Shown: positions 1,434 to 18,721 of the stretch, piece by piece
Layout of the letters: the number at the start of each line of letters is the position of its first letter
How positions within the stretch are numbered: position 1 is the first letter of the stretch
Assembly (NCBI GenBank): GCA_945861465.1
Contig: CAMAVB010000013.1
Location: 1 to 56,400 of the forward strand
DNA from: Candidatus Kuenenia stuttgartensis
GTDB taxonomy: Bacteria > Planctomycetota > Planctomycetia > Planctomycetales > Planctomycetaceae
DNA: 56,400 bases
Direction of reading: 5' to 3'
Notes under the pieces: model-generated
Database searches by the model: none
What the model was told of the DNA's origin: nothing
The model's input: only the letters and a program-made list of their open reading frames with translations
Made by a program: the position numbers and the translations under genes

Positions 1434-2711
1434 ATGCCGAATAGATCTCGATGCATGAATTGGATGAACCGAAAAATGGAGTCGCCTCTCAACAATTCCG
1501 CAGCCACTGTCGTGGACTTATTCTGCGGCGCTGGCGGACTCTCTTGCGGTTTTATGAATGCAGGTTTCGAAGTCGTCCAGGCGATTGACCATTGGGCACC
1601 CGCTGTTGAAACGTATCGGCGAAACAATGGAACTCATGGTTCCTTTGGTGAGATTGACGCGACAATGTCACTTCCCCGCTCGACAGTGATCGCTGGGGGC
1701 CCACCGTGCCAGGGATTCTCTTCGGCAGGGCATCGCAGAGACGACGACGACCGCAATTCGCTCGTGCTGGAATTCGCGAAGATTATCGCGGCGAATCGGC
1801 CTGATGCATTTGTCTTTGAAAACGTCGAAGGTTTCTTGACGGGAGCTGACGGAACGTTTGTTTTGGAATTACTCAACACCGTCATTGACGCCGGTTACTG
1901 GGTTCATATCAGGAAAGTGAACGCTGCCAATTTTGGCGTTCCGCAGCACCGAAAACGGGTGATTGCGATCGGAGGACGTGGCTGGGCTCCCGATTTCCCA
2001 AAAGCCACCCATCGAGCATTTGGCGCACCTGGGGCAGAACTCGCCAACGAACGTCATCTTCCGTATTGTCCATCGATTGGTGACGCATTGGCTGGACTGC
2101 CACCGGCCGCGATTCGAGACTGCAATGTTGCCGACACCTGCCACCAGTTCGTTCCACTTGACGGTGACGACGCTGCACGCGCCAAGATGCTCAAGCAAGG
2201 GCAGTGCATGCGAGATCTACCATCGGAATTATGGCACGAAAGTTACGAGCGGCGAGCAAACCGACGCGTTAAGGATGGGACGCCAACTGAACGTCGAGGT
2301 GGAGCTCCTGCCGGTCTCCGCAGGCTTCGCGCTGATGAACCTTCTAAGGCAATCACAGGCGGTGCACTTCGAGACTTTCTGCACCCAACTGACGACCGTA
2401 TGTTGACTGAGCGAGAATGCGCCGTACTACAAACGTTCGGTCCCGACTATCAATTCTCAGGGACGCAGGCTGAGCGCATCCAGCAGATTGGGAATGCTGT
2501 GCCGCCAAGAATGGCAGAAGCGATTGCTTCCTGTTTGATGAATGGCTTGGGTTCCTGCAGGCCAACAGATGATTGTGACGGTCGATTACTTAGCTTTATT
2601 CCGACTTTGTCAAATGGCATGAGTCCCATTCTTCAGCGAGTCGTCGATCGTGTCCAGCGCAGGTTCTCCCGTGAAACCACGGTTCTTGTGCAGAAGCAAC
2701 TATGGGATTAA
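1434..2711 (+). CDS. DNA (cytosine-5) methyltransferase of a type II R-M system
   Basis: This 425-aa protein transfers methyl from SAM to C5 of cytosine in a target site, protecting host DNA from the adjacent nuclease. Ordered C5-MTase motifs are visible: I DLFCGAGGLS (about residue 28), IV PPCQGFSSAG (about 89, catalytic Cys), VI ENVEGF (about 129), VIII QHRKRVIAIGG (about 170), IX RRLRADEPSKAITGG, and X IQQIGNAVPP (about 350). The target-recognition region lies between VIII and IX. About 40 residues follow motif X. ATG 1434 is the first in-frame start; ATGs at 1452 and 1458 are possible alternatives that leave motif I intact. The 3' end overlaps the endonuclease gene by 10 bp, so the two are translationally coupled. 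Specificity cannot be read from sequence. Confidence 0.95.
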   Translation: MPNRSRCMNWMNRKMESPLNNSAATVVDLFCGAGGLSCGFMNAGFEVVQAIDHWAPAVETYRRNNGTHGSFGEIDATMSLPRSTVIAGGPPCQGFSSAGHRRDDDDRNSLVLEFAKIIAANRPDAFVFENVEGFLTGADGTFVLELLNTVIDAGYWVHIRKVNAANFGVPQHRKRVIAIGGRGWAPDFPKATHRAFGAPGAELANERHLPYCPSIGDALAGLPPAAIRDCNVADTCHQFVPLDGDDAARAKMLKQGQCMRDLPSELWHESYERRANRRVKDGTPTERRGGAPAGLRRLRADEPSKAITGGALRDFLHPTDDRMLTERECAVLQTFGPDYQFSGTQAERIQQIGNAVPPRMAEAIASCLMNGLGSCRPTDDCDGRLLSFIPTLSNGMSPILQRVVDRVQRRFSRETTVLVQKQLWD

Positions 2712-3757
2712 CAAAAGCGCAAGCAACGATTTGGCAGAAGGTGAGGTCACTTGGCAATGGCGGACAGGCGGTAAGACTGTCCGATCCGGTGTGCTCCTAC
2801 CTCATTGCCGTGATCGCGCATGATTTAAAGTTGCAGGATTCGTTTCCGGAATTCGCTAAACCACCGTCGCCATTTTTCTCTAATCAGCCGCTTGTAGAGC
2901 TGAGTATCGATGGACCGGACGCGAAATGTCTGTTCGAGCGTCTCGTCGCTGTGGTTGACGACGCAGACACTTACTTTGCCTGCCTTGCTGCTCTTCACAA
3001 AGCTCGGCTGAAGTACGAACGCATTCTGAGTACGCAGCCTATGCCGACTCTGGAACAAGTCGGCCCTCGCGGGTTACTGCAATATGGAAAGCTGAAAGCC
3101 GGTGCTTTGGCAGGATTCTTGTTCTGGCGTAAGTGGTTCTTCGATATCGACAACCGAGCTGGCCAGGAAACGGGCTATCTTTTCGAGCCAATCATTGCGC
3201 ATGCGATTGGCGGAACTCCTGCACCAGCACGCAAGAGTCCCGTCAAACGGCGCAACGATGCAACGAAAGGCCGACAGGTAGACTGCCTCGTGGATGATTC
3301 GGCATACGAGTTCAAGATTCGCGTGACTATCGCTGCTTCTGGACAGGGGCGTTGGCAGGAAGAGCTGGATTTTCCGCTGGACTGCCGAGCGAGTGGATTC
3401 ACTCCAATCCTCGTATGCATGGATAGCACTGCGAATCCGAAGCTTGATGCTTTGATCAAAGCCTTCGAAGCCCACGGCGGAAAGGTATACATCGGAGACG
3501 CTGCCTGGAACCATCTTGATGACGTCGCGGGTAAGACGATGGCCGTGTTCCTCGACAAGTACGTCAAGGCTCCGATCAAAGATGTTCTGGCCCAAGCCGA
3601 TGACCAACTTCCCAACCTGATTGCGGAGAGCTCTGCCACTTATATCAATATCACAATCGGAAACGACACGTTGCGAATTGACCGGAAGGAAGGCATCGAC
3701 GACATCGAAGAGATTGATGACATGCCCGACGACGCGGCGGAAGAAATCGTGGACTGA
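2702..3757 (+). CDS. ApaLI-like type II restriction endonuclease
   Basis: This 351-aa protein immediately follows and overlaps the C5-methyltransferase, the usual place for the cognate endonuclease. The central region resembles the ApaLI-type endonuclease family, including the segment around FLFWRKWFFDIDNRAGQ and the GRQVDCLVDDSAYEFKIRV block. In that block an Asp followed by ExK (D-x9-EFK) fits a PD-(D/E)xK metal-dependent nuclease site at about residues 195-210. Family assignment is from memory of conserved blocks, without alignment. If it is right, the enzyme may recognise GTGCAC, but isoschizomer status is not shown. The acidic C-terminus (rich in D and E) is low complexity. Downstream lies a truncated ATPase gene on the opposite strand. 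Confidence 0.7.
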   Translation: MGLTKAQATIWQKVRSLGNGGQAVRLSDPVCSYLIAVIAHDLKLQDSFPEFAKPPSPFFSNQPLVELSIDGPDAKCLFERLVAVVDDADTYFACLAALHKARLKYERILSTQPMPTLEQVGPRGLLQYGKLKAGALAGFLFWRKWFFDIDNRAGQETGYLFEPIIAHAIGGTPAPARKSPVKRRNDATKGRQVDCLVDDSAYEFKIRVTIAASGQGRWQEELDFPLDCRASGFTPILVCMDSTANPKLDALIKAFEAHGGKVYIGDAAWNHLDDVAGKTMAVFLDKYVKAPIKDVLAQADDQLPNLIAESSATYINITIGNDTLRIDRKEGIDDIEEIDDMPDDAAEEIVD

Positions 3758-4215
3758 CATTTCGAGAATATGTATTCCAGATTACCGGCCACCATGCGTT
3801 GAAATTCATCGATCACCAGAAAGACTTGATGCTTGCGTTCCGTCTGCGTTGACGCCGCCAGCAGCATGTAGTTGATCAAGCGGTCGATCTCGGGGGCACC
3901 GCTCGGCGTGAGCGTGGCTGACAAATGGAAGTACAGCAGTTGCGGTTCGAGGAACGGCCTCGTCAGATCAATGGCCTGTTCGACGACCGCACGATCATGG
4001 CCAGTGGTGTCTGTGACATTCAGCGGAGCACAACTGGCGAGTCGCTTGATGACCTCCTGCACATGCACTCCGGCTTTGCGGATCTCCAGATGCAGGTCCT
4101 GCTTCTTAGCGGTCGTGATCACCGGATAATCGACATAAGAAGCGATTTGCGAGGATATCGAAATCACGGTATGCTTCATCCTGAACTCAGATTCCCGTGT
4201 CCAGAATGCAATCAA
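3758..4215 (-). pseudogene. VirD4/HerA-type conjugation ATPase fragment, truncated at both ends
   Basis: The space between the R-M pair and the helicase gene is filled on the minus strand by about 150 codons of an ATPase. The Walker B-like block VFLVIDEFQRMVAGNLE is preceded by LLYFHLSAT and a PEIDRLINYML segment. This is the usual layout of the C-terminal half of TraG/VirD4- or HerA-like DNA-pumping ATPases. There is no Walker A. The N-terminus is cut at the helicase start (about 4200). The similarity stops at about 3765, directly beside the endonuclease stop codon. The frame continues leftward into the endonuclease only by chance. I read it as a relic of a larger mobile-element gene broken by arrival of the flanking defence genes. 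An in-frame ATG at 4179 could start a short product, but function is unlikely. Confidence 0.6.
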
Positions 4216-7200
4216 CTATGTCAACATCGGTGAACGGCTCCGGCCTGCGTGACAATCATCAGCGAGGGTCGGTCGCGGAATTTTTGCAGGAGAAAATTGC
4301 TGACGGATCAATGCTATCGATCGTTTCCGCCTACTTCACGATTTACGCCTACGATGCCCTGAAATTATCGCTTGATAAGATGGCCCATCTCGATTTCTTG
4401 TTTGGTGAACCACGATTCATCAACCGGCTTGACCCTGACAAATCCGAATCGAAGTCGTTCTTGATTAACACGGATGGGCTCGCCCTGAAAAATCGACTGC
4501 AACAAAAACGCATCGCACGTGAATGCGCTCAGTGGATCGAACAAAGAGTTGATATCAAGACGATCAAACAAACCAACCTTCTGCATGGCAAAATGTACCA
4601 TGTAGCCAATGGTGGCGTTGAGGACGCAATCCTGGGTAGCTCGAACTTTACCGTCCGTGGATTAGGACTGAGCGAAGCCAGTAGCAACATCGAGCTGAAT
4701 CTGGTCGTCGATAGCAACCGTGATCGAAGGGAACTTAAGCAGTGGTTCCGCGAGATCTGGACCGACGAGACACTGGTTGAAGATGCCAAAACAGATGTGC
4801 TGCGTTACCTCCGCAAGCTCTACGCAAATCAGTCACCGCAGTTCGTCTACTACCTCACGCTGTTCCATCTCTTTCGCGATTATCTTGATGGGACCCACGA
4901 CCTTGATGAAAACCTTCGCCGAGTTGCCCTGCCGGATACTCAGATCTGGCGTGCTTTGTTCTCGTTCCAGAAAGACGGTGCCAAAGCAGCGATCAACAAG
5001 ATTCTCAAATACAACGGTTGTGTTTTGGCCGACAGCGTCGGTCTCGGAAAAACGTACACTGGCCTGGCAGTGATCAAGTACTTTGAGCTTCGAAATGAAC
5101 GTGTTTTGGTCCTTTGCCCCAAAAAACTCCGTCGCAACTGGACCGTTTATCGATCGAACAGCACTCTCAATCCATTTGTGGACGACCGTTTTCGTTTCGA
5201 CGTGCTGCATCATACCGACCTATCCAGATCCTCCGGCGAATCGAACGGCGTCGATCTCGACACTCTCAACTGGGGAGCCTACGACCTCGTTGTCATCGAC
5301 GAGTCGCACAATTTCCGTAACAATAAACTTGCCACGCAGCGGCCCGGCGACGTGGAGAAACGGCGCAGCCGCTACGAACGACTGATGGAAGATGTTATCT
5401 CATCGGGCGTCCGGACCAAAGTCCTGTTGCTTTCCGCCACGCCTGTCAACAATCAGCTTGCCGACCTGCGCAACCAGATTTCTTTCATTGCAGGTGGGGA
5501 TGTCGCACGTAACGACAATGCAGATGCTGCGTTCGCCGAAACTCTGGGGATTACGTCGGTCAAAGAAACCACTCGCAACGCCCAAACTCATTTCACTAAC
5601 TGGGCAAAGAAACCACCCGCCAACCGAAAGACACGCGAACTGATTGCCGCGATCGGCGGTGATTTCTTTAAGCTTCTTGATGGACTGAGCATCGCCCGCT
5701 CTCGTCGGCAAATCGCGTCTTACTACGCTGCCGAAATGAAAACACTGGGCGGATTCCCGCGACGGCCCGCACCGAAAGCAGTCCACGCGCCGATTGACCT
5801 ACTGGAGCGATACCTGTCGTTCGAGCAACTGGATACCGAGATCAGCGGACTTCGCCTCGCTCTTTATCATCCAACCAGTTTTCTTCGAGGCGATTTGCCT
5901 GAAACGACACAAGCGGCGTATCAGGATAAGATTTACGGTGGATTCACGCAGGAGGGTCGCGAAAAAATTCTGATCGCAATGATGAAAGTCAATTTTCTCA
6001 AACGACTCGAAAGTTCAGTAGACTCGTTCCGCCTGACACTCCAACGCACCATTGACAAGATCAACCGACTCGAAGAACGCATCGACGCTTTCGAAAACCA
6101 TGTGAACGAAAACCCTAATATCGATTACGAATCCCTCACTCCCGACCAATTCGAAGACCCCGACTTTGACAACGAAGAATTTACGATCGGTGGTCGACGC
6201 CGAATTCATCTGGCCCACCTGAAGCTGCCCGAATGGCTACAAGCCGTTCGTCACGATCGAGCTCAGTTGCAGTTTCTCCTGGAGAAAACCGAATCCGTCA
6301 CCCATAAACGCGATGGCAAGATGGCGGAACTGAAAAAACTCATCGAAGCCAAGGCAAAGCAACCGACCGTCAACCGCGATGGGAAGCCAAATCGCAAAGT
6401 CCTGATCTTTACGGCGTTTGCCGATACGGCCCGCTACCTGTATGAGCACATCGCTCCTTGGGCTGAAACACATCTCGAAGTTCACGCGGCACTCATTTGC
6501 GGAGACGGTGGCAACAAGACTTCGCTTGGACGGACCGACTACGACGAGATCCTCACCAACTTCTCACCGATCGCCAAACGCCGGGGCGATCAAATCGCAC
6601 GTTTTCCGAACCAGCGGGAAGAGATCGAATTGCTGATTGCAACTGATTGTATCAGCGAAGGTCAAAACCTGCAGGATTGTGATTTGTTGATTAATTACGA
6701 CATCCACTGGAACCCGGTCCGCATCATTCAAAGATTTGGCCGAATCGACCGCATCGGTTCTCGCAACGACTCGGTGCAACTCGTCAATTTCTGGCCGGTC
6801 GCCGATCTCGACCGATACCTGAAAGTCAAACATCGCGTCGAAGCCCGCATGGCGCTGGTAGATTTGGCCGCCACGCAAACTGACAACCTGCTCGACCCAA
6901 GCCAGCTGGAGGATTTGATCAAAGACGACCTTCTCTTTCGCGACCGCCAGCTTAAACGACTCAAAGACGAAATCCTTGACCTGGATGACCTGGACGATTC
7001 TGTTTCGCTCACAGATTTTTCGCTCGACGAATTCCGACTCGACCTGCTGCGTTTTCTCGAAGCCAACCGCTCCGCCCTCGAAGAAGCTGGTGAAGGCTTG
7101 TACGCCGTCGTGCCGCCAAAGTCGGAGGTTCCGGCCGCACAGCCCGGCGTGCTCTTCTGTTTGCGGCACTCGCCTTGCAACAACAACGGCAACAATCGCA

Positions 7201-7640
7201 CGGCCAACGGTCCGTCGGACAAATCACTCGATTCCGGCCACCTCAATCCGCTCGGGGCGTATTATCTGGTCTTCGTTCACGACGACGGTACTGTGCGTTA
7301 CAGCTTTGCCCGTCCCAAAGAATCCATGCTGTTATTCCGCGACCTCGCCGCCGGAGAACCGACAGCCTTTGAACGCCTCTGCGATGAATTCGACACTCGC
7401 ACTTCCGACGGTTCCGACATGAGCCATTACGACGGCCTATTGAAGAAAGCCCTGGCGTCGATTGAGAGTACATTTCAGAAGCGCGCCGCAGCCGGACTGC
7501 TGACCAGCCGCACCGCCGTGCTGCCAACACTTGGCGAAACGCCAAAATCCGATGGCAATGCGTTCGATCTGGTGACATGGTTGGTGATTCAGGATGACGC
7601 GACTGGTCGCCCATTTCCCATAACTGACGAAGCACGCTGA
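4197..7640 (+). CDS. PLD-type nuclease fused to SNF2/superfamily 2 helicase (defence module protein 1)
   Basis: This 1147-aa protein has an N-terminal phospholipase D-like domain with HGK at 130-132 and GSSN at 147-150, the HxK...GSxN half-site of PLD nucleases. A SNF2-like superfamily 2 helicase follows: Walker A DSVGLGKT at about 279-286, DESH box at 368-371, LLLSATPVNN, and motif VI GRIDRIGSRND at about 846-856. Acidic residues are clustered at about 900-950. The expected role is ATP-driven translocation along DNA with nicking or cutting by the PLD domain. The combination recalls DISARM proteins DrmD (helicase) and DrmC (PLD), here as one polypeptide. The start at 4197 overlaps the relic ATPase on the other strand; an ATG at 4218 (residue 8) is an alternative. 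The methylase begins 5 bp after the stop. Confidence 0.85.
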   Translation: MSRMQSTMSTSVNGSGLRDNHQRGSVAEFLQEKIADGSMLSIVSAYFTIYAYDALKLSLDKMAHLDFLFGEPRFINRLDPDKSESKSFLINTDGLALKNRLQQKRIARECAQWIEQRVDIKTIKQTNLLHGKMYHVANGGVEDAILGSSNFTVRGLGLSEASSNIELNLVVDSNRDRRELKQWFREIWTDETLVEDAKTDVLRYLRKLYANQSPQFVYYLTLFHLFRDYLDGTHDLDENLRRVALPDTQIWRALFSFQKDGAKAAINKILKYNGCVLADSVGLGKTYTGLAVIKYFELRNERVLVLCPKKLRRNWTVYRSNSTLNPFVDDRFRFDVLHHTDLSRSSGESNGVDLDTLNWGAYDLVVIDESHNFRNNKLATQRPGDVEKRRSRYERLMEDVISSGVRTKVLLLSATPVNNQLADLRNQISFIAGGDVARNDNADAAFAETLGITSVKETTRNAQTHFTNWAKKPPANRKTRELIAAIGGDFFKLLDGLSIARSRRQIASYYAAEMKTLGGFPRRPAPKAVHAPIDLLERYLSFEQLDTEISGLRLALYHPTSFLRGDLPETTQAAYQDKIYGGFTQEGREKILIAMMKVNFLKRLESSVDSFRLTLQRTIDKINRLEERIDAFENHVNENPNIDYESLTPDQFEDPDFDNEEFTIGGRRRIHLAHLKLPEWLQAVRHDRAQLQFLLEKTESVTHKRDGKMAELKKLIEAKAKQPTVNRDGKPNRKVLIFTAFADTARYLYEHIAPWAETHLEVHAALICGDGGNKTSLGRTDYDEILTNFSPIAKRRGDQIARFPNQREEIELLIATDCISEGQNLQDCDLLINYDIHWNPVRIIQRFGRIDRIGSRNDSVQLVNFWPVADLDRYLKVKHRVEARMALVDLAATQTDNLLDPSQLEDLIKDDLLFRDRQLKRLKDEILDLDDLDDSVSLTDFSLDEFRLDLLRFLEANRSALEEAGEGLYAVVPPKSEVPAAQPGVLFCLRHSPCNNNGNNRTANGPSDKSLDSGHLNPLGAYYLVFVHDDGTVRYSFARPKESMLLFRDLAAGEPTAFERLCDEFDTRTSDGSDMSHYDGLLKKALASIESTFQKRAAAGLLTSRTAVLPTLGETPKSDGNAFDLVTWLVIQDDATGRPFPITDEAR

Positions 7641-7645
7641 GATCC

Positions 7646-10600
7646 ATGCCTGATATCCGCGATAAAATAAAAACCGCGCTTGCTGCGTTTGCAAGCCAAC
7701 CCGTGCGTCTCGCAGCCATCGAATTGCTTCGCACAATCGGCTATGAGTCGGAACGGACCATCCAGTTAGGCGACTCAAGCCCGCAGGGGTTTCTTGACTT
7801 TGTGACAACTCATGCTGGTCAATCGACGTTCGACGAAGCCAAGGCACTTGCACCAGCATGGAAATCGGCGGACCTGCTGTTCCAACTCACTGACGAAGAG
7901 CTTTCCCGTGAGTCTCGCTTGTTTAAAGACACCAGCATCAACGCTGGCCTGTTGCGATCCTATCTGTTCTTCGCCATCGAACTGACTGGCACCAACTACC
8001 CGCGTGGCAAGCTGACCAGTATTGCCCGCCAACTCAACCGCGTCTTCCCGATGCCTGTCATGGTGCTGATCAAACATGTTGTGGACAAACGCGAAGTGCT
8101 GTCCATCGCTGTCATCAATCGCCGCCAGCACAAACGCGATCTGGCCAAAGACGTGCTCGGCAAGGTCACGATCATTCGAGATATCGCCCTCAATGAACCG
8201 CATCGCGGACACCTCGACATTCTTGCCTCCCTGGCACTGCCGAATCTCGCGCATCCGCAGCGGCTGCTAATCAACAATTTCGACGCCCTCCACACTGCGT
8301 GGGAGGAAATTTTTAACGTCGAATTGCTAAATAAGAAATTCTACCGTGACCTTGCCAACTGGTATTTCTGGGCATTACCGCAGGTCGAGTTTCCAGACGA
8401 CATTGAAAAGGTCGATGAAAAGCGTCGCGCAACCTCGCTGATCCGTCTGCTCACACGACTGATCTTCTGCTGGTTCCTCAAAGAGAAAGGACTAATCCCG
8501 GAAAAGCTGTTCAACGAAACCGATTTGAAGGAGATCCTGAAGCAACTCAAGCCCGATTCCTGCAGCTACCACCAAGGCATTTTGCAAAACCTGTTCTTCG
8601 GGACTTTGAATCAAAAGATGGGCAAGGACAACAAGGGCAATCCGCACCGGGCTTTCGCCAAAGACGAGGGCTTTCAAAAGAACAAAAGCACCTACGGGGT
8701 CGATAACCTGTTTCGCTATGAAGAGCACTTTCGCGATCCGGACACTGCGATCGATCACTTCGCTGAAATACCATTTCTCAACGGTGGCCTATTTGAGTGC
8801 CTCGACCGGACCGAACCAAAGTCCAACAAGAAGATCTATGTCGACGGGTTTTCCCGCAACGCAAAAAAACGTCCGCATGTCCCGAACCATTTGTTCTTTT
8901 CTGAAGAGCTATCGGGCATCGATCTCTCAGAATCGTACGGCGAGCGAACTCGTCGAAACGAATCAGTACGGGGGTTGTTGCGAATCCTCAGCGCTTACAA
9001 ATTCACGATCGTCGAAAACACTCCTATCGATCAGGAAATTGCACTCGATCCGGAACTGCTGGGTAAAGTCTTCGAGAATTTGCTGGCATCGTATAACGAA
9101 GAAACCAAAACGACTGCCCGCAAGCAGACTGGATCATTCTATACGCCCCGCCCAATCGTGGAATATATGGTCGATGCCTCACTCAACGCCCATCTGACGA
9201 CAGTGCTGACGGCGGCAGGCATGAAAGAAGACAGTGCCAGAGAGGACTTGGAAAATCTGTTCGCGTACACCGAAATTCCGCATCCGTTTACTGATCGCGA
9301 GGTCGATACACTGCTGGACGCGATTCACACCTGCAAGATTCTTGACCCTGCGTGCGGCAGCGGTGCGTTTCCGATGGGGATGATGCAAAAGCTGGTTTAC
9401 ATCATTCACAAACTGGATCCCGAGAATGCTAAATGGATGCAGTTGCAAATTGACAAGGCTGGTGAGATTCCCGATCCGTCCGCTCGTGATGCGGCCATCA
9501 AAGCGATTGAAAAAGATTTTGCTGACAATGAAGATGACTACGGTCGCAAACTGTATTTGATCGAGAACTGTCTATACGGCGTCGATATCCAGCCGATCGC
9601 CATCCAGATTTCCAAGCTCCGATTCTTCATCTCGCTGGTCTGCGACCAGAAAACGAACCGTCGCAAGCAGGACAACCACGGGATCCGCCCTCTGCCCAAC
9701 CTTGAGACACGGTTCGTTGCCGCTGACACGTTGATTTCTCTCAAGAAAGACCCCGAGCGATCTCTGTTCGAAAGTGCGAAAGTCCAGAAGTTGGAATCCG
9801 ATCTGCAACGTGTCCGCCACGACCATTTTGCGGCCACAACTCGACAAAAGAAACTTGCTCTTCAAACCCGTGATTGCGAAATCCGCGATTCGCTCGCCAC
9901 GGAACTTGAACAGGCGGCATTCTGGGACCAAACCGTTGCCAGAAAGCTGGCCGACTGGGATCCTTACGATCCGCAAGCGTCCGCCGACTATTTCGAACCG
10001 CTGTGGATGTTCGATCGTTCGTTGGGCGAAGGGTTCGACATCGTGATTGGGAACCCGCCGTACATCCAGATTCAAAAATTCCCTAAAACACAGAAAGACA
10101 AATGGGAAGCTCAGAAGTTCACGACCTACGCCGCCATGGCTGACATCTATTGTCTCTTTTATGAACGCGGTGCTCAGCTCCTTCGCTCCGGAGGTCACCT
10201 TTGTTTTATCACTTCGAATAAATGGATGCGGGCCGGTTACGGCGAGCAACTGCGAGATTTTCTTGCCAGCAAAGTGAACACGACATCCGTCCTCGACTTC
10301 GGCATGGCGCAGAATTTTGGAGCGGCAACCACCTACACTTGCGTCACGTCGTTCGTCAAACAACTGTCAGCCCGTCACACCCTCAGTTGTTACGTCGGTG
10401 ACACTGCCGCCGCGATGAGCGAGCCAGCGCAATACTTCGCCAGCCACGCCGTTCCGCTCACGACACTGGACCGCAACCCCTGGGTCGTTCTGCCACCCGA
10501 GCGCCACTCGATCAAAAAGCAAGTTGAACACGTCGGTGTACCGCTGGAAAGCTGGAAGATTCAAATCTATCGAGGCATCCTTACCGGTTTCAACGACGCT

Positions 10601-11506
10601 TTCTACTTAACACAGGAGCAGCGCGACGCATTCGTCACGGACGACTCGCGCTGCCAGGAGTTCATCGTGCCATTATTGCGCGGAAGGTCTGTGGAGCGCT
10701 ATGCGACGAAGTGGGATGGCACATGGATGATCAATTCACACAACGGCATCAAGGAAAGGTCAATTCCAGCCGTGAGCTTGAAAACTCAATGCCCTCCACT
10801 TTGGCACCACCTTGTCACGCATGAGCAACAATTGCGTAAGCGCCAAGACCAAGGGAATCACTGGTCGAATCTCCGCAACTGCGCGTACCTTGAAGAATTC
10901 TCAAAGCCGAAAATTATCTATCAGGAAATAGCGCAAAAGCTCCCGTTTTATTTCGATCAAGGTGAGCAATTCTTTGTTAATGACACCTGCTACATCATTA
11001 CGAGTCAAGAGGAGTCGCTTACTGCTCTGACAGCGATTCTCAACTCCACCGTATTCCGCTGTTGCTTCAAGGACAACTTTCCAGAAAATGCAGGTAACAC
11101 ATACCGCGCAAAGAAGGTGTTCATGGACAAAATTCCCATTAGGAAACCCACCGTCGCCGAGATCAGCCTGTTCGAGCGGTTAGTCCCCCTCATCCAATTT
11201 GCCAAAGCTGATGTTGAAGCGAGCACAGGCGCTGCCACCTTCTTTGAGGACGTCATCGACGCCTGCGTGATGGAGTGTTATTTTCGTGAACACATGGCCG
11301 AGCGAGATTTATTGTTCATCGATCAACTCGCACCGCTCGTCGCGGCGTACGACGCTGTAGCCAGCGATGCAAAACAACGGGACTTTCTCACGCACTTGCA
11401 CGGCACACTTAACGCCCCAAGCCATCCAATCCGCAATCAATTGATTCGCCTCACTGCCGACAGTCCTGCCTTGCTTGGCGTCATTAAGGCCGAGGGGAAA
11501 GTATGA
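7646..11506 (+). CDS. Giant Eco57I-like N6-adenine DNA methylase (defence module protein 2)
   Basis: This 1286-aa protein is expected to methylate adenine in host DNA, marking self. The gamma-class order is visible: SAM-binding motif I LDPACGSGAFPMG at about 565, YGVDIQPIA downstream, and catalytic motif IV IGNPPYIQIQKF at about 800. The N-terminal roughly 500 residues are family-specific (LGKVFENLLASYN and TGSFYTPRPIVEYM precede motif I). The C-terminal roughly 400 residues probably hold the target-recognition region (GRSVERYATKW, YQEIAQKLPF). I saw no nuclease motif in the N-terminus, unlike true type IIG enzymes, so cleavage probably comes from the PLD-helicase next door. It lies 5 bp after the helicase and overlaps the ATPase gene by 4 bp. 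Closest described relatives by layout are DISARM DrmMI and type ISP-like methylases; this is an inference. Confidence 0.85.
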   Translation: MPDIRDKIKTALAAFASQPVRLAAIELLRTIGYESERTIQLGDSSPQGFLDFVTTHAGQSTFDEAKALAPAWKSADLLFQLTDEELSRESRLFKDTSINAGLLRSYLFFAIELTGTNYPRGKLTSIARQLNRVFPMPVMVLIKHVVDKREVLSIAVINRRQHKRDLAKDVLGKVTIIRDIALNEPHRGHLDILASLALPNLAHPQRLLINNFDALHTAWEEIFNVELLNKKFYRDLANWYFWALPQVEFPDDIEKVDEKRRATSLIRLLTRLIFCWFLKEKGLIPEKLFNETDLKEILKQLKPDSCSYHQGILQNLFFGTLNQKMGKDNKGNPHRAFAKDEGFQKNKSTYGVDNLFRYEEHFRDPDTAIDHFAEIPFLNGGLFECLDRTEPKSNKKIYVDGFSRNAKKRPHVPNHLFFSEELSGIDLSESYGERTRRNESVRGLLRILSAYKFTIVENTPIDQEIALDPELLGKVFENLLASYNEETKTTARKQTGSFYTPRPIVEYMVDASLNAHLTTVLTAAGMKEDSAREDLENLFAYTEIPHPFTDREVDTLLDAIHTCKILDPACGSGAFPMGMMQKLVYIIHKLDPENAKWMQLQIDKAGEIPDPSARDAAIKAIEKDFADNEDDYGRKLYLIENCLYGVDIQPIAIQISKLRFFISLVCDQKTNRRKQDNHGIRPLPNLETRFVAADTLISLKKDPERSLFESAKVQKLESDLQRVRHDHFAATTRQKKLALQTRDCEIRDSLATELEQAAFWDQTVARKLADWDPYDPQASADYFEPLWMFDRSLGEGFDIVIGNPPYIQIQKFPKTQKDKWEAQKFTTYAAMADIYCLFYERGAQLLRSGGHLCFITSNKWMRAGYGEQLRDFLASKVNTTSVLDFGMAQNFGAATTYTCVTSFVKQLSARHTLSCYVGDTAAAMSEPAQYFASHAVPLTTLDRNPWVVLPPERHSIKKQVEHVGVPLESWKIQIYRGILTGFNDAFYLTQEQRDAFVTDDSRCQEFIVPLLRGRSVERYATKWDGTWMINSHNGIKERSIPAVSLKTQCPPLWHHLVTHEQQLRKRQDQGNHWSNLRNCAYLEEFSKPKIIYQEIAQKLPFYFDQGEQFFVNDTCYIITSQEESLTALTAILNSTVFRCCFKDNFPENAGNTYRAKKVFMDKIPIRKPTVAEISLFERLVPLIQFAKADVEASTGAATFFEDVIDACVMECYFREHMAERDLLFIDQLAPLVAAYDAVASDAKQRDFLTHLHGTLNAPSHPIRNQLIRLTADSPALLGVIKAEGKV

Positions 11507-13164
11507 AATCGCGGCTGCAACGCATCGAAATCCGAAACTTCAAAGCTTTCCGCGAATTCACGCTCGATCTCGAAGGCCGTCACCTTCTCATCTATGGTCC
11601 CAACGGCTCTGGAAAATCGTCGCTCTACTGGGCGCTCTACACTTTCCTGCAAAGCGCCCGCAAAACCACCGACGCGGTCGCCAAATACTTCGACCCTGCC
11701 GGACCCGAAAGACTCCTCAATATCCACGAGCAGAACGCACCGACACCAAGGCCTGGAAGGATTGCCGTGACGCTTAGGGACTTCGCAACGAAGACCGATA
11801 CACAATATGAAATCACCAAGGACACACATGGCACGTTAAGACAACCGGTCATTGAAAAAGGTGATCTTGCCAGCGACTTCGTTACCTACCGTTTTTTCTT
11901 CGGCTTCTCAGATTTCAAGAATTCCGCTGACTTCAATATTTGGCCGCTTTTTAAGCGTGAGATTTTACCCTTCTGCGTTGCCACTGGTGGACGTGCTGGG
12001 GACCTGGAAGATCGCTGGAACGCACTACAAACTACTCCTCCCAACCCTAACAGAAACAAAGGGCCCGCAGGCGCTAAAGCGTTCCGAGAGTTTGGTGACA
12101 AACTCAATGACTACTCTGAAGCGTTGAAGCCGGTCGTTGAGAGGATCAGTAACGCAGCTCAAGAATTCTACGATACGCACTTTGCTGCGAATGGTGAGGA
12201 CAAGATATCGCTGAAACTGGGTGTGACAGCGTCCGCTTATCACTCAAAGACATATAAGGTAACCATGCCGCCCGTATTGAAATTTGGAATACAGGTCAAT
12301 GGAACAGAAGTGAGGAAGCCTCAGAGCTTCTTGAACGAAGCGAAAATGACGCAGCTTGCGATTTCAATTCGTTTCGCTGCTTCACTTGTAAATCTCCATG
12401 ACTCTGACCTCAAGTTACTCGTGCTCGACGACCTGCTCGTCAGTCTCGACATGAGCAACCGGATGAAAGTCGTTGAAATCCTTTTGTCCGAAACCTTTGC
12501 CAACTATCAGAAGATCATCCTGACTCACGAACTCGGCTTTTTCCGCGAGTTCCGCCGCAAAGTCGGAGCTGGGCACGCTGACTGGTGCTTCTTCAGGCTG
12601 GAAGGCACTCCAAACGCAAACATTGTCTGCAAGAGCGAGAAAACGGAGACTCAAAAAGCTGAGGAATACCTGCGTGGTTACAATCTCGATGAAGCAGCGT
12701 TGTGTCTCCGCAAAGCAGTTGAAGATACGGCCAAACGCTTCATCAATCACCAGGAAGTCGTTCCGACCAAAGATTTCCTCGGATTAGCGGACGCACTTCG
12801 AGCTGCCCGGAATCGAATCCTTGGAGAGTTGCCGGTTGAACTTTATGAAAGAGTGTTGCGCAACACTCCGGACGCTCATCGTGCCTTATTGATTTCGTCA
12901 AGTGACGATGACCTGGACAACAATGGCACGCTCGATGCTGCCACCCGAGGTCGACTCAAAACCAATCGAAACCGTCTTCGCCAACTGGCAACCGTCGATC
13001 ATGTCGAACGACTGCGGCAGATCAAACTCATCGACGACATCCTTGCCTGTACGGAACGGGTCCTCAACCCCGCCGCACATGCCGGAAACCCACCGCTCTA
13101 TGAGAAGGAAGTGCAGGATGCGCTTGACTTGATCAGGCAGTTGGAATCATCGCTAACGGAATGA
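11503..13164 (+). CDS. RecF/SMC-like AAA ATPase with HEPN-like C-terminus (defence module protein 3)
   Basis: This 553-aa ABC-type ATPase has Walker A GPNGSGKSS at about residues 30-38 after IEIRNFKAFREF, the usual SMC/RecF opening. A signature-like segment SFLNEAKMTQLAISIRFA lies at about 275-292 and Walker B LKLLVLDDLLVSLD at about 303-316. A short region replaces the long coiled coil. The last roughly 160 residues carry AEEYLRGYNLDEAALCLRKAVEDTAK and later LNPAAHAGNPP. This pattern resembles the HEPN-like tails of defence ATPases such as RloC- or PrrC-type proteins. The canonical R-x4-6-H RNase motif is not clearly present (RFINH has x3), so nuclease activity is unproven. It overlaps the methylase by 4 bp (ATGA), implying translational coupling. 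A sensor or effector role is inferred. Confidence 0.8.
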   Translation: MKSRLQRIEIRNFKAFREFTLDLEGRHLLIYGPNGSGKSSLYWALYTFLQSARKTTDAVAKYFDPAGPERLLNIHEQNAPTPRPGRIAVTLRDFATKTDTQYEITKDTHGTLRQPVIEKGDLASDFVTYRFFFGFSDFKNSADFNIWPLFKREILPFCVATGGRAGDLEDRWNALQTTPPNPNRNKGPAGAKAFREFGDKLNDYSEALKPVVERISNAAQEFYDTHFAANGEDKISLKLGVTASAYHSKTYKVTMPPVLKFGIQVNGTEVRKPQSFLNEAKMTQLAISIRFAASLVNLHDSDLKLLVLDDLLVSLDMSNRMKVVEILLSETFANYQKIILTHELGFFREFRRKVGAGHADWCFFRLEGTPNANIVCKSEKTETQKAEEYLRGYNLDEAALCLRKAVEDTAKRFINHQEVVPTKDFLGLADALRAARNRILGELPVELYERVLRNTPDAHRALLISSSDDDLDNNGTLDAATRGRLKTNRNRLRQLATVDHVERLRQIKLIDDILACTERVLNPAAHAGNPPLYEKEVQDALDLIRQLESSLTE

Positions 13165-13235: not shown

Positions 13236-15703
13236 TTGAATGCAATTTGGGGAAGGTCGCGGCGGGGAAGGAAGGTCGCGGCGGGGATCGCGGCGGGGAC
13301 ACAGCTTGATGTTTCAGGAGGTGCGGGCATTGACTCACTGTTGCTTGGTGACCTGTCTTTGAACACGAGTAGCATCCTGGGGCCGGTCAACTTCGATACG
13401 GGGGCCGACGCCGGGCAGATACAGGTTTTGGACTCCTTCAGCGCAATCGGGAAAGTCGCTCATCTGGGCTTGAATTCGCATGGTACTTTTCCCGGTGACA
13501 CGCTGTTTGGTCCGGGCGGCTCGTTGGCATTTACGACTCTGGTCAACGCACCATTGGGTGTCAGTCTCAGCACGGTTGCAATGTCGATCCGTCTGGGCGG
13601 CGGCGCTGACACAATTTACGCACAGCCATTCGCCACAGGCACGGTCCAGGTGGTCGTCACCGATGACGGCCTTGGCATCAACATGATATCGCTGACGGGC
13701 TCGGACGCCGCACTGTTTGAACTGGACGGGGCCGCCTTATACCTGAAAGCAGGCACCGGACTCGACTTTGAGACGACATGTTGGTCAATCGCCTGCCGGG
13801 ATCGCAGGATGAAGCCGTGATCGATGTGGCATCAGCGATCACTGTGACGCATTCCACAGGGACGCACACCGTGCAAAGCCTGACGATTTACGAGCCCTTC
13901 ACACTCTACGGAGGCACGTTGATCGTGACCGACAACCTGATTCAACAGAATGGGACTACCTTCACAATCACTGGCGGCAGACTGCGTGGGGGTTCGCTCG
14001 TCACGTCCGGCGGAGCGGTGCTGAACGTGTTGGCTGGCACACTTGACGGCGTGACGCTCGGCACGACCGTGTCCGGAACGCGTTTGCCTGCCACTGTGCA
14101 GGGCACGAGCGGTGTGTTCTTCGTGACAGGCGGCCTCACATTGACGAACGGTTCGCTGCTTAATCTTGGCAACTTCATGAATCACGGGACGATCCGTGCA
14201 GATGCGGGTGGTGAGATTCTCGTGACAGGCAACCCTGGCACCACGTTCACCAATGCGGTTACTGGCGTACTGACGGCTGCGGGCGGAACGCTGATCGTGA
14301 ACACCACGACCAATTATGCTGCGGGAACACTGACCGGTGGCACATGGCAGGCAATTGGCAACAGCATCCTGCGAATCACGGGTGCCAGCATTGCGAACAA
14401 CGCCGCCACGATTTTGCTCGACGGTGCCGGGGCCCGTATCACTCGTGACAACCTGGGAACGAGCGCCCTGGCCTCTTTGACCACAAATGCGGCGACCGGG
14501 AGTCTGACATTACGAAACAATGCAAATCTTGCAACGACCGGAGCAATAATCAACCATGGTTCGCTCACGATTGGTCCCGCCAGCACGCTGACGATCAACG
14601 GCACATTCACACAGGACAGCGACGCCTCGCTGGCCGTGGAGATCGGCGGCGCTCCGGCCAGCGGTCTGTACGGAAAACTCATGTCCAGCAGTGCCGTCGC
14701 GCTCAATGGCACTCTCGACGTGCGGCTTACAAACGGCTACCACCCGGACCAGAGGTCAAGCTTTCCGATCCTGACCTTCTCAAGTCGAACCAGCGATTTC
14801 ACTATGATCAACGGACTATTCGTGGCTGGTACGGAGGTTTTTAAGGCGGTGTACGACGCGACGCACCTGACGTTGAGCTCCGAGACTAACAAGGCACCGA
14901 CCGAGGTGATTCTGGATCACTCTCTGGTAGCGGAGAACATGCCTTTTGGAACACTTGTCGGATCGCTCAGCACGATCGACCCGAACACACTCGATACGTT
15001 TACCTACGCATTGGTGCCCGGCACCGGAAATATCGACAACACGAGCTTCACAATCGTCGGAGCTACTCTGCAGACCAATTCCAGTTTCGATTTTGAAGTG
15101 AAAAGCAGCTATTCCGTCGGAATTCGCAGCACTGATCAGGACGGGCTATCAACGGAGAAGGCTTTCACAATCAGCGTGACCAACAAGACTGAGCTGGGCG
15201 GGATCGATGTCCAGAACGGCCAAACCCAACGCTCGTATCTGCGGACGCTGGATGCAATTTTTGATCAATCCGATGGATTAATGGACCTGATCAACAACAA
15301 CCGCCTGCAGCTCACTCGCTTTGATCTCAACGGACAGAATGGTTCGCGGATGACGATGCCGACTCGCACCGCCGTGGCGAACAGGATTGTGTTCAACTTT
15401 GGAATTCAGGGCATTGGCGGCAACCGGAATACGAATGCCGGGGACGGATATTACGAACTGGGCATCGACCTCGACGGGAATGGATCTTTCGAGTCGAAAA
15501 AGTACTTCCATCGCTTGCTGGGTGATGTCAATGGAGACGGCATCGTCAGCTCCACCGACAAAAGTCAGGTGCTTTCGGCCTCGGGCAGCGCATCGCCAGA
15601 ATCGGATGTGAACGGCGACGGGTTGGTCAACATCCTTGACACGTCGCTGCTGAGCCGTGCCGTGGGACGAAAACTGAAAAGTGGTTTGTTCCGTGATGAC
15701 TGA
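13236..15703 (+). pseudogene. Frameshifted surface protein: cadherin-like/beta-strand repeats with dockerin-like C-terminus
   Basis: Two adjoining frames read as one kind of protein. The first (13236-13820) has acidic beta-rich text ending in a cadherin-like SLTGSDAALFELDG...LDFET. The second (13778-15703) begins PGSQDEAVIDVASAITVTHS, contains many G/T-rich beta-strand repeats and a cadherin-like segment (VAENMPFGTLVGSLSTIDPN), and ends with two dockerin-like Ca-binding loops (GDVNGDGIVSSTD and SDVNGDGLVNILD). They switch frame near 13770. No signal peptide is present at the 5' end, which opens in a short GC-rich tandem repeat. I infer a 5'-truncated, internally rearranged remnant of a giant planctomycete cell-surface protein. 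The second frame, at 641 aa, could still be translated, but no export signal is visible. Confidence 0.65.
13252..13300 (+). repeat. Short GC-rich tandem repeat at the 5' edge of the surface-protein remnant
   Basis: The word GGTCGCGGCGGGGA occurs twice and a shortened TCGCGGCGGGGA follows, all within about 50 bp. This looks like slippage-type duplication at the breakpoint that removed the gene's 5' end. Confidence 0.6.
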
Positions 15704-17155: not shown

Positions 17156-17182
17156 CAAAGTGACTCAAACTGAGTGACTTTG
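17156..17182. repeat. Perfect 12-bp inverted repeat upstream of nusA
   Basis: CAAAGTGACTCA (17156-17167) and TGAGTGACTTTG (17171-17182) flank AAC. With a 3-nt spacer it is either an operator for a dimeric regulator or a tight hairpin in the nusA leader. The word CTGAGTGACTTTG recurs at about 46359-46372, upstream of the Ser/Thr kinase gene, so it may also be part of a dispersed repeat. Confidence 0.6.
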
Positions 17183-17195
17183 TCGGGCGCGAAAA

Positions 17196-17222
17196 GTGGG
17201 ACATTGCTCCCGCTTTTTTTTT
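17196..17222 (+). terminator. Intrinsic terminator-like hairpin before nusA
   Basis: A GTGGGA/TCCCGC stem (one G-U pair) with a short loop is followed by nine T residues, 33 bp before the nusA ATG. It could end upstream transcription or act as an attenuator in the nusA leader, which would suit a factor that binds terminator hairpins. The stem is short, so confidence is moderate. Confidence 0.5.
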
Positions 17223-17254
17223 CACCATACACAGCGCTATCAGACATCTACGTC

Positions 17255-18721
17255 ATGAACGGAAACGAAATACTTAGAATTGTCGATGCGATCCACCGCG
17301 ACAAGGCCATCGATTCCGAGGTCGTGTTCGAAGGGATTGAGCAGGCGATTCTCTCTGCCGCCCGGAAACACTTTTCGGAAGAAGAGCAGCTGGAAGTTCG
17401 CATTGATCGCGAAACCGGCGAACCCGCGCTCATTTGCGACGGTGCTACGCTCGACCCCGAATTGCTGGGAGATCTGCTTGGCCGAATTTCGGCGCAGACT
17501 GCCAAGCAGGTGATGATTCAAAAAATTCGCGAAGCCGAACGCGACATGCTCTATGAGGAATACCTTGAGCTCCGAAGTCAGCAGGTGTCGGGGCAGGTGA
17601 CGCGTGTCGATCGAGGCACCGTGATCGTGAGTCTCGGAAAAATCGAAGCCATTTTGCCTCGCAGTGAGCAGATCCGCAAGGAAAACTATCGCACGGGTGA
17701 TCGTGTTCGTGCCATTGTGCTGGATGTTCGCAAGACAGGCTCGCGAGTCCGCGTGATTCTGTCTCGCACGCATCCGGATTTTGTGCGTCGATTGTTCGAA
17801 GTTGAAATTCCGGAAGTGAACGATCGGATTATCGAAGTACGTTCGATCGCTCGAGAAGCGGGCAATCGCTCCAAAGTGGCTGTATCCTGCAGCGATTCGT
17901 CAATCGATTGCGTCGGTGCCTGTGTCGGCGTGCGTGGTGCCAGAATTCGCGGCATTGTTGAAGAGTTGGCTGGCGAACGAATCGATATCGTGCGTTGGAA
18001 CGATTCACTTCAGATTCTCGTTCCCAATGCAATGCAGCCAGCGGAAGTTGAAGATGTAATTCTCTGTCAGATGCTTGGGAAAGTGATCGTGCTGGTGCGT
18101 GAGGATCAATTGTCGTTGGCGATCGGGAAATTTGGTCAAAACGTACGGTTGGCGTCAAAACTCGTTGGCTGGGACATCAATGTGATGACTCAGACGCAGC
18201 TCGACCAGCAGCTCGACAAGTCAATTGAAGCCTTCTGTGTCGCCCCGGGAGTCACGCCGGAACTGGCAGAAAATCTGGTCTCACAGGGGTTCTTTACGTT
18301 CGACGACCTGTCCGTAATCGAACCAGATCAACTTGCAGAAATGAGTGGTCTGCCCGCAGAGGACTGTGATCGAATTATCGAGCACGCAGACGTCGAAAGT
18401 GCGCGACTGGAAATCGAAGAGCGGATCGCCGCAGAACAGCGGAAGTACGCCGCCAGTCAGGCAGAAATCTCTCCCCCGAAACCAAAGAAACCTCTTCAAC
18501 AGACTGAAGAAGAGGTTGCGGCGGCAAATACCGAGGAGGGCGAGGAGGTACAGCCTGCGATCGCTGAATCAGGTGCCGACATATCAGGTGCCGACATATC
18601 AGATGGTAGCGACGTGGGGGTGGAAGAACGTATCGGCGAGGAGGATTCTCCTCCCGCTGAGGAGGAAACTGTGACTTCAGCCGCAGTTGATGATTCTTCG
18701 GCAGTGTCTGAGGAATTGTGA
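17255..18721 (+). CDS. nusA: Transcription termination/antitermination factor NusA
   Basis: This 488-aa protein binds RNA polymerase and nascent RNA and modulates pausing, termination and rRNA antitermination. I chose ATG 17255 ([18 protein letters not shown]) because NusA proteins start this way. Domains: N-terminal RNAP-binding (about 1-105); S1 (about 110-165, [19 protein letters not shown]); KH1 and KH2 (about 170-320, with [14 protein letters not shown] and [18 protein letters not shown]); a helix-hairpin-helix segment (about 345-375, [20 protein letters not shown]); and a long acidic tail with a small exact duplication (GADIS repeated). It heads the nusA-infB-rbfA cluster, a near-universal bacterial gene order. 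The terminator-like hairpin just upstream is compatible with autoregulation. Confidence 0.97.

What the first reader, a model, noticed from the sequence alone, without database searches (positions are those of the whole stretch)
4197..13164. Compact three-gene candidate defence system: PLD-helicase, giant adenine methylase, SMC-like ATPase
The sequence shows a tightly packed operon (5-bp gap, then 4-bp ATGA overlap) with three large proteins. Established knowledge: DISARM couples a SNF2 helicase (DrmD), an adenine methylase (DrmMI) and a PLD protein (DrmC) with DrmA/DrmB. Here helicase and PLD are one chain, DrmA/DrmB-like DUF1998 proteins are absent, and a RecF/SMC-like ATPase is added. Inference: the methylase marks self, the PLD-helicase attacks unmarked DNA, and the ATPase regulates or executes a second response. 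It may be a DISARM-like variant or an unnamed class.
Basis: partly seen in the sequence, partly recalled or inferred. Interest (0 to 1): 0.8.

Follow-up and report, generated by a model that had tools for sequence, protein, structure and literature searches.

The report
Restriction system with likely suicide switch
Three linked bacterial genes look like a motor-driven DNA-cutting antivirus system whose methylase marks the cell's own DNA, joined to a third protein that probably stalls or kills the infected cell if the virus disables the first line of defence.

Summary
In detail: an HKD(PLD)-SNF2 helicase, an Eco57I-type N6 methylase and an ABC ATPase form one tight operon. DISARM and DUF499 (BREX-related/Hma) systems are not supported. 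The helicase-methylase pair is the fixed core: 58 of 61 sampled methylase loci with enough upstream sequence carry the helicase. The third slot is exchangeable; this ABC family occupies it in 29 of 58 loci with room. The HKD pair H-x-K is intact in 60 of 60 paired helicases and broken in 13 of 13 relatives that sit with type III Mod/Res genes, so HKD is probably the nuclease. The methylase N-terminus is DUF4391-like (profile E 3.6e-6). ABC directly follows only methylases with a C-terminal extension (27/39 versus 0/16). Its helical C-terminus carries R-x3-E...[AS]-H, the catalytic signature of the anticodon nucleases PrrC/RloC; PrrC is held silent by its R-M partner. Best reading: an ATP-dependent R-M system guarded by a PrrC-like, probably HEPN, RNase. 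The R-M part is likely; the RNase is plausible but unproven, since fold evidence for that domain is missing. New variant of a known theme.

The parts
4197..7640 (+). HKD(PLD)-SNF2 helicase, 1147 aa (start may be 4206 or 4218)
   Evidence: Pfam; PADLOC C3a139 HKD+Snf2 E 3.2e-123 over 37-1130
4485..4760 (+). HKD/PLD nuclease domain (residues 97-188); H130-x-K132, GSSN 147-150
5031..5054 (+). Walker A DSVGLGKT (279-286)
   Evidence: 279 and 281-286 invariant in 71 of 71 aligned helicases, S280 in 65
6384..6758 (+). Helicase C-terminal domain (730-854)
7641..7645 (+). 5-base gap between helicase and methylase
7646..11506 (+). Eco57I-type N6-adenine methylase, 1286 aa
7712..8314 (+). DUF4391-like N-terminal domain (residues 23-223)
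9050..10318 (+). Methylase catalytic core (469-891), NPPY at 803-806 (10052-10063)
10670..11140 (+). TaqI_C target-recognition domain (1009-1165)
11309..11503 (+). C-terminal extension (1222-1286) that goes with the downstream ABC gene
11503..11506 (+). ATGA stop/start overlap methylase/ATPase
11503..13164 (+). ABC ATPase with C-terminal helical domain, PrrC/RloC-like, 553 aa
11596..11619 (+). P-loop GPNGSGKS (32-39)
12646..13158 (+). C-terminal helical domain (382-552), probable HEPN-like RNase; R403 12709-12711, E407 12721-12723, N522, H526 13078-13080

Best explanation
A two-layer antiphage system. Layer 1 is ATP-dependent restriction-modification: the Eco57I-type methylase reads a site through its TaqI_C domain and methylates adenine on host DNA; the SNF2 motor, tethered to it through the methylase's DUF4391-like N-terminal domain, translocates on unmethylated DNA and cuts with its HKD nuclease. 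Layer 2 is the ABC protein, made next to the methylase by translational overlap and docked on the methylase's C-terminal extension. Its ABC head senses the state of the complex, DNA ends or nucleotides, and holds its C-terminal PrrC/RloC-like RNase silent; when phage blocks or breaks the R-M complex, the RNase is released and stops translation. Shown here: gene order, families, motif conservation, co-occurrence, and a broken HKD in the type III relatives. Inferred: enzyme activities, docking, sensing, RNA target, phage defence.
Against: No assay. C-terminal profile alignment to AAA_13/RloC-like proteins is not significant. In one search the HEPN-type hits are below Pfam cut-offs, 7 of 10 C-termini gave none under 0.01 (the window's own gave none at all; L134's best hit is TPR). 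E-to-H spacing is 56-133 instead of 36-52. The fold lists cover mainly the head. Pfam's own DUF4391 model does not detect the methylase N-terminus, and DUF4391's coiled tail against methylase 700-960 gave 0.0012 in the controls. The ABC-extension link is not significant once phylogeny is allowed for: 9 independent pairs, same direction 5.3 on average, opposite 0, median p 0.0625. Half of the sampled loci with room lack ABC (29 of 58 have it), so it is not needed for restriction. The loci are the best 80 by similarity to this methylase, not a random sample, and L045/L093 look like one contig counted twice. Foldseek also aligns PtuA over much of the length, TM about 0.35.
Confidence: 0.58

Rival explanations
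1. The ABC protein is not an RNase but a RecF/Rad50/PtuA-like DNA-end sensor or loader that controls the helicase; its C-terminal helices are a docking domain.
For: Head is RecF/Rad50-like; retron/Septu PtuA chains align over up to 621 columns, gaps included; PADLOC AbiLi spans the head, E 7.7e-11; in Prevotella locus L043 an HNH gene follows the ABC gene, as PtuB follows PtuA (recalled).
Against: The PrrC/RloC-type triad is kept in relatives down to 22% identity. The PtuA rows listed in PADLOC match only the P-loop region. The genes after ABC differ from locus to locus. PtuA TM-scores are low, rmsd about 10-17.
Confidence: 0.25
2. The methylase is itself a type IIG restriction enzyme, and helicase and ATPase are accessory.
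Against: No Pfam nuclease family in the N-terminus; the N-terminus matches DUF4391, a stand-alone gene in type III relatives; the conserved N-terminal residues are not an obvious PD-(D/E)XK set (my reading).
Confidence: 0.12
3. A Pgl-like or BREX-like system in which the methylase marks phage rather than host DNA.
For: PglX profiles match the methylase core, 97.7 bits against a cut-off of 500.
Against: No DUF499 match in the genome; no PglZ/BrxC-type family among the Pfam hits of the seven ORFs scanned (no dedicated search was run); PglX-level matches are shared by many N6 methylases (recalled).
Confidence: 0.05

Closest known systems
PADLOC candidate C3a139 'HKD+Snf2'; plasmid type III R-M loci with SNF2 helicase + DUF4391 + Mod + Res
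   Same: Same helicase family over full length; a DUF4391-like element between motor and methylase.
   Different: There DUF4391 (or a small gene in its place) is separate, the methylase is type III, a Res nuclease is present (fragmentary in L040) and the HKD pair is broken; here DUF4391-like is fused to an Eco57I methylase, no Res in the operon, HKD intact. What system PADLOC files C3a139 under I did not learn.
EcoprrI-PrrC and RloC
   Same: ABC head plus C-terminal R-x3-E...H motif; linked to an R-M system (PMC2610378 and PMC3710099, passages; RloC itself is rarely R-M linked).
   Different: R-M is an HKD-SNF2/Eco57I pair, not type Ic; the protein is only weakly AAA_13 (32.1 bits, cut-off 36); longer E-H spacing; its gene goes with an extension on the methylase.
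Type-2 BREX-related (BR) / Hma systems
   Same: HKD-Snf2 helicase, N6-MTase and an ATPase (PMC12839542, sections 28 and 30).
   Different: Their ATPase is DUF499 AAA+, plus DUF3780; here a RecF/Rad50-like ABC, no DUF499 in the genome.
PbeABCD / CxC-ABC systems
   Same: ABC ATPase plus HKD-SF2 helicase, sometimes a methylase (PMC10853773, passages).
   Different: CxC zinc-hook ABC with DndE and cytosine methylases; here no CxC/CxxC motif in the ATPase sequence and an adenine-type methylase.
Phospholipase D-like antiphage helicase (NCBIfam NF042964; PADLOC PLD_Helicase)
   Same: PLD and helicase in one chain.
   Different: Only partial matches: 114 bits against a cut-off of 1100, 70.8 bits.
DISARM
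   Same: SNF2 helicase, PLD and adenine methylase functions (recalled).
   Different: No MZB/DUF1998 match on this contig; helicase and PLD in one chain; ABC protein added.

Membership tests
DISARM | DrmB-type DUF1998/MZB protein in the locus | tested here: not met
   only genome match on contig C243, window is C13
DISARM | DrmD-class helicase over curated cut-off | tested here: not met
   143 bits against 610
BREX-related (BR)/Hma | DUF499 ATPase | tested here: not met
   0 matches in own genome
BREX-related Type 2 | N-terminal HKD fused to Swi2/Snf2 helicase | tested here: met
BREX-related Type 2 | DUF3780 gene | not tested
   no search with that family; none among the Pfam hits of the seven ORFs scanned
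PrrC/RloC anticodon nucleases | ABC head with C-terminal R-x3-E...H triad | tested here: met
   R 26/26, E 24/26 (D 2), H 26/26; R, E, H invariant in 7 AAA_13 proteins; spacing longer than published
PrrC/RloC anticodon nucleases | AAA_13 (PF13166) family over its cut-off | tested here: not met
   32.1 bits, cut-off 36
PrrC/RloC anticodon nucleases | HEPN fold of the C-terminal domain | tested here: inconclusive
   all-helical model, but fold lists cover residues 1-385; sub-threshold HEPN/DUF4145 hits in 3 of 10 C-termini
PrrC/RloC anticodon nucleases | tRNA anticodon cleavage | not testable with these tools
   needs assay
PrrC | linked to a restriction-modification operon | tested here: met
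   23 of 28 ABC genes directly after a methylase (or its tail, L115) have the helicase in the locus; 4 of the other 5 run into a contig start
Type IIG restriction enzyme | nuclease and methylase in one chain | tested here: inconclusive
MADS | MAD2/MAD3 over cut-off | tested here: not met
   22.4 of 720 and 25.1 of 420 bits
PbeABCD/CxC | CxC zinc-hook in the ABC protein | tested here: not met
   no CxC or CxxC in sequence (read by eye)
Type III-like HKD-Snf2/DUF4391 loci | separate DUF4391, Mod and Res genes | tested here: not met
   no DUF4391 over cut-off in genome; the next genes are the Eco57I methylase and the ABC gene

The most novel reading that the evidence does not exclude
A distinct class of ATP-dependent restriction systems in which a DUF4391 adaptor couples one SNF2 motor either to type III Mod/Res (motor nuclease dead) or, by fusion, to an Eco57I methylase (motor nuclease alive), and in which the methylase tail is a plug-in socket for exchangeable abortive effectors, most often a previously undescribed PrrC-like ABC-RNase that fires when restriction is disarmed.
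Probability: 0.4. Interest if true: 0.75.

Novelty: new variant of a known kind. Interest (0 to 1): 0.6.

Why it matters
PrrC guarding EcoprrI is the classic case of a second-line suicide RNase silenced by a restriction enzyme, but it is tied to a type I system. If the reading holds, the same logic exists around an unrelated R-M architecture in several phyla, with a candidate docking module and natural presence/absence pairs, so that how an R-M complex silences and releases such an effector becomes testable. It would also suggest that some proteins filed as 'type IIG' are methylase subunits of motor-driven systems, and give DUF4391 a role.

Tried and rejected
DISARM, BR/Hma, MADS, PbeABCD: see membership test. 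Type IIG alone: kept as rival. HEPN proof by profile alignment: failed (hhalign of the C-termini prob 1.1-3.1), though the unrestricted alignment puts R-x3-E and the SH motif roughly in register. DUF4391 C-terminal coil against methylase 700-960 gave 0.0012: taken as coiled-coil noise, not used. ATPase on plasmids: 1 of 72,556 records at E 1e-8 (Prevotella L043, which has the divergent trio). ATPase in the phylum sample: own genome plus two partial matches of 294. AAA_13 in the phylum sample at E 1e-30: 1 of 99. A literature search that was too loose gave nothing useful; DUF4391 occurs in 1 paper of the library (listing only); a Gao_RL search gave nothing relevant. The term C3a139 itself was not searched. 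Krishnan et al. 2020 on ABC ATPases, the likeliest earlier description of such a trio, is not held, so prior mention there is possible.
Full report
Observation. The three ORFs, the 5-base gap and the ATGA overlap are as described. Families: HKD/PLD + SNF2 + Helicase_C; Eco57I + TaqI_C; SMC_N/RecF-type ABC. PADLOC gives the helicase a full-length match to its candidate C3a139 'HKD+Snf2' (E 3.2e-123) and the methylase generic type IIG matches (E 3.1e-116); the ATPase's listed rows (25 of 88) are mostly P-loop-level, AbiLi spanning the head at 7.7e-11. No one system takes all three. The host is an 8.2 Mb genome; the closest methylase relative in the tree is from a Pirellulaceae MAG, 80% identity over 467 core columns.

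What recurs. 79 have a callable methylase ORF. Of 61 with at least 3.6 kb in front, 58 carry the helicase somewhere in the locus; of 58 with at least 1.7 kb behind, 29 carry the ABC relative (30 of all 79). ABC-bearing loci come from Planctomycetota, Verrucomicrobiota, Armatimonadota, Pseudomonadota, Thermodesulfobacteriota, Bacteroidota, Chlorobiota, Chloroflexota and Cyanobacteriota. Other genes take the third place or sit between helicase and methylase. Representatives tested with Pfam: DUF1016/YhcG nuclease (cluster in 13 of 86 loci, one contig counted twice), AlbA_2/Schlafen, Fic, RhuM, GmrSD-HNH, an ABC protein with a sub-threshold PHP domain, SIR2, and pAgo+SIR2. Only representatives were identified, so cluster counts assume that members share the family. 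In the phylum sample the helicase query matches 31 of 294 genomes at E 1e-30, the ATPase over its full length only the window's own genome: the trio is rare but widely scattered.

Reciprocal test. Starting from the ABC family, IMG/VR gave 39 loci; 33 match only a short stretch. Of the 6 with longer matches (L153-L158), 5 have a methylase match just upstream (ending 9-93 bases before ABC in L155-L157; in L153 and L154 the match stops near residue 900 and adjacency was not checked further) and 4 of those a helicase match (only 81 residues in L153); L158 has 24 bases of room. A divergent trio with an AlbA_2 gene inside lies in Prevotella (L043). Within these samples the ABC family is found beside this kind of R-M system.

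The helicase is probably the nuclease. 71 helicases (ORFs under 1000 aa left out) were aligned: SNF2 motifs are nearly invariant, and H130 and K132 are both kept in 61, of which 60 (window included; L045 and L093 look like one contig) lie in loci with this methylase and one (L118) has its methylase cut off. The ten exceptions are L059 (another helicase of the window's genome) and nine relatives in loci with DUF4391, a type III-like Mod and Res (Res fragmentary in L040, which also keeps an H but not the K). Four further plasmid relatives with Mod and Res (two annotated with DUF4391, two with an unnamed or otherwise named gene in its place) also lack the pair, making 13 of 13; a Planktothrix relative whose listed neighbours are not DUF4391, Mod and Res keeps it. 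The Walker A and DESH motifs stay intact in the type III relatives. Loss of HKD just where another nuclease is present argues that HKD does the cutting here.

ABC and the methylase tail. Among 55 intact methylases with room, ABC follows directly in 27 of 39 with the C-terminal extension and 0 of 16 without (one of the 27, L115_13891, is not a true orthologue but a protein that shares only the recognition domain and extension). In L115, L132 and L134 the main methylase lacks the extension and ABC follows such a separate protein, similar only from about 934-953 to 1266-1274. On a quick tree of the methylase core the ABC label changes at least 10 times on well supported branches (16 in the best tree), hardly clustered against shuffles (mean 19.1, as low in 52 of 500), so ABC comes and goes; in 9 independent pairs it follows the extension 5.3 times on average and never goes against it, but the median p is 0.0625. 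20 of 28 methylase-ABC junctions end in [AGT]TGA, the 4-base overlap form (in L091 the called start does not use it).

Known or new. HKD-Snf2 + N6-MTase + ATPase is a published theme (Type-2 BR, PMC12839542, sections 28 and 30 read), as is HKD-SF2 + ABC (CxC/Pbe, PMC10853773, passages) and ABC-HEPN + R-M (PrrC). In the listings of the searches and the passages read I saw no description of this combination, but I read only passages of most papers and the most likely source (Krishnan 2020) is not held. Hence: new variant of a known kind.

Noticed in passing
window 1434-2711 and 2702-3757 (+): A separate type II R-M pair: C5 methylase (E 1.2e-60) overlapping an ORF with a sub-threshold ApaLI-like endonuclease match (E 1.5e-4).
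   Followed up: no
window 3640-4215 (-): ORF of 191 aa antisense to the gap before the helicase with a weak AAA_22 match (0.0055); may be a remnant of another ATPase gene.
   Followed up: no
window 13778-15703 (+): Dockerin I plus weakly cadherin-like protein next to the operon, then NusA (17174-18721) and IF-2 (19045-21849): the defence genes lie beside a core operon.
   Followed up: no
L039-L042, L044, L192-L195: Plasmid loci: SNF2 helicase with broken HKD + DUF4391 or a small gene in its place + type III Mod + Res; the helicase query matches 116 plasmid records, of which 11 were fetched and 9 are of this kind (L043 came from the ATPase query).
   Followed up: partly
L115, L132, L134: Separate proteins that share only the recognition domain and tail with the methylase, placed directly before the ABC gene.
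   Followed up: partly
L094 1-5940: Helicase and methylase in one ORF.
   Followed up: partly
L137 3967-15745: Two tandem methylase-ABC pairs followed by one helicase.
   Followed up: no
L049, L110, L125: The dyad is followed by pAgo + SIR2 (L049), or by an OLD-TOPRIM/UvrD pair, Gabija-like, in L110; L125 has relatives of both by clustering.
   Followed up: no
L144: RloC-like AAA_13 protein (797 aa) about 2 kb from a 1300 aa ORF that covers a helicase homologue, same strand, in another genome of the phylum.
   Followed up: no
L153-L157: The system lies on contigs that IMG/VR lists as viral; mobile elements or host DNA, not resolved.
   Followed up: no
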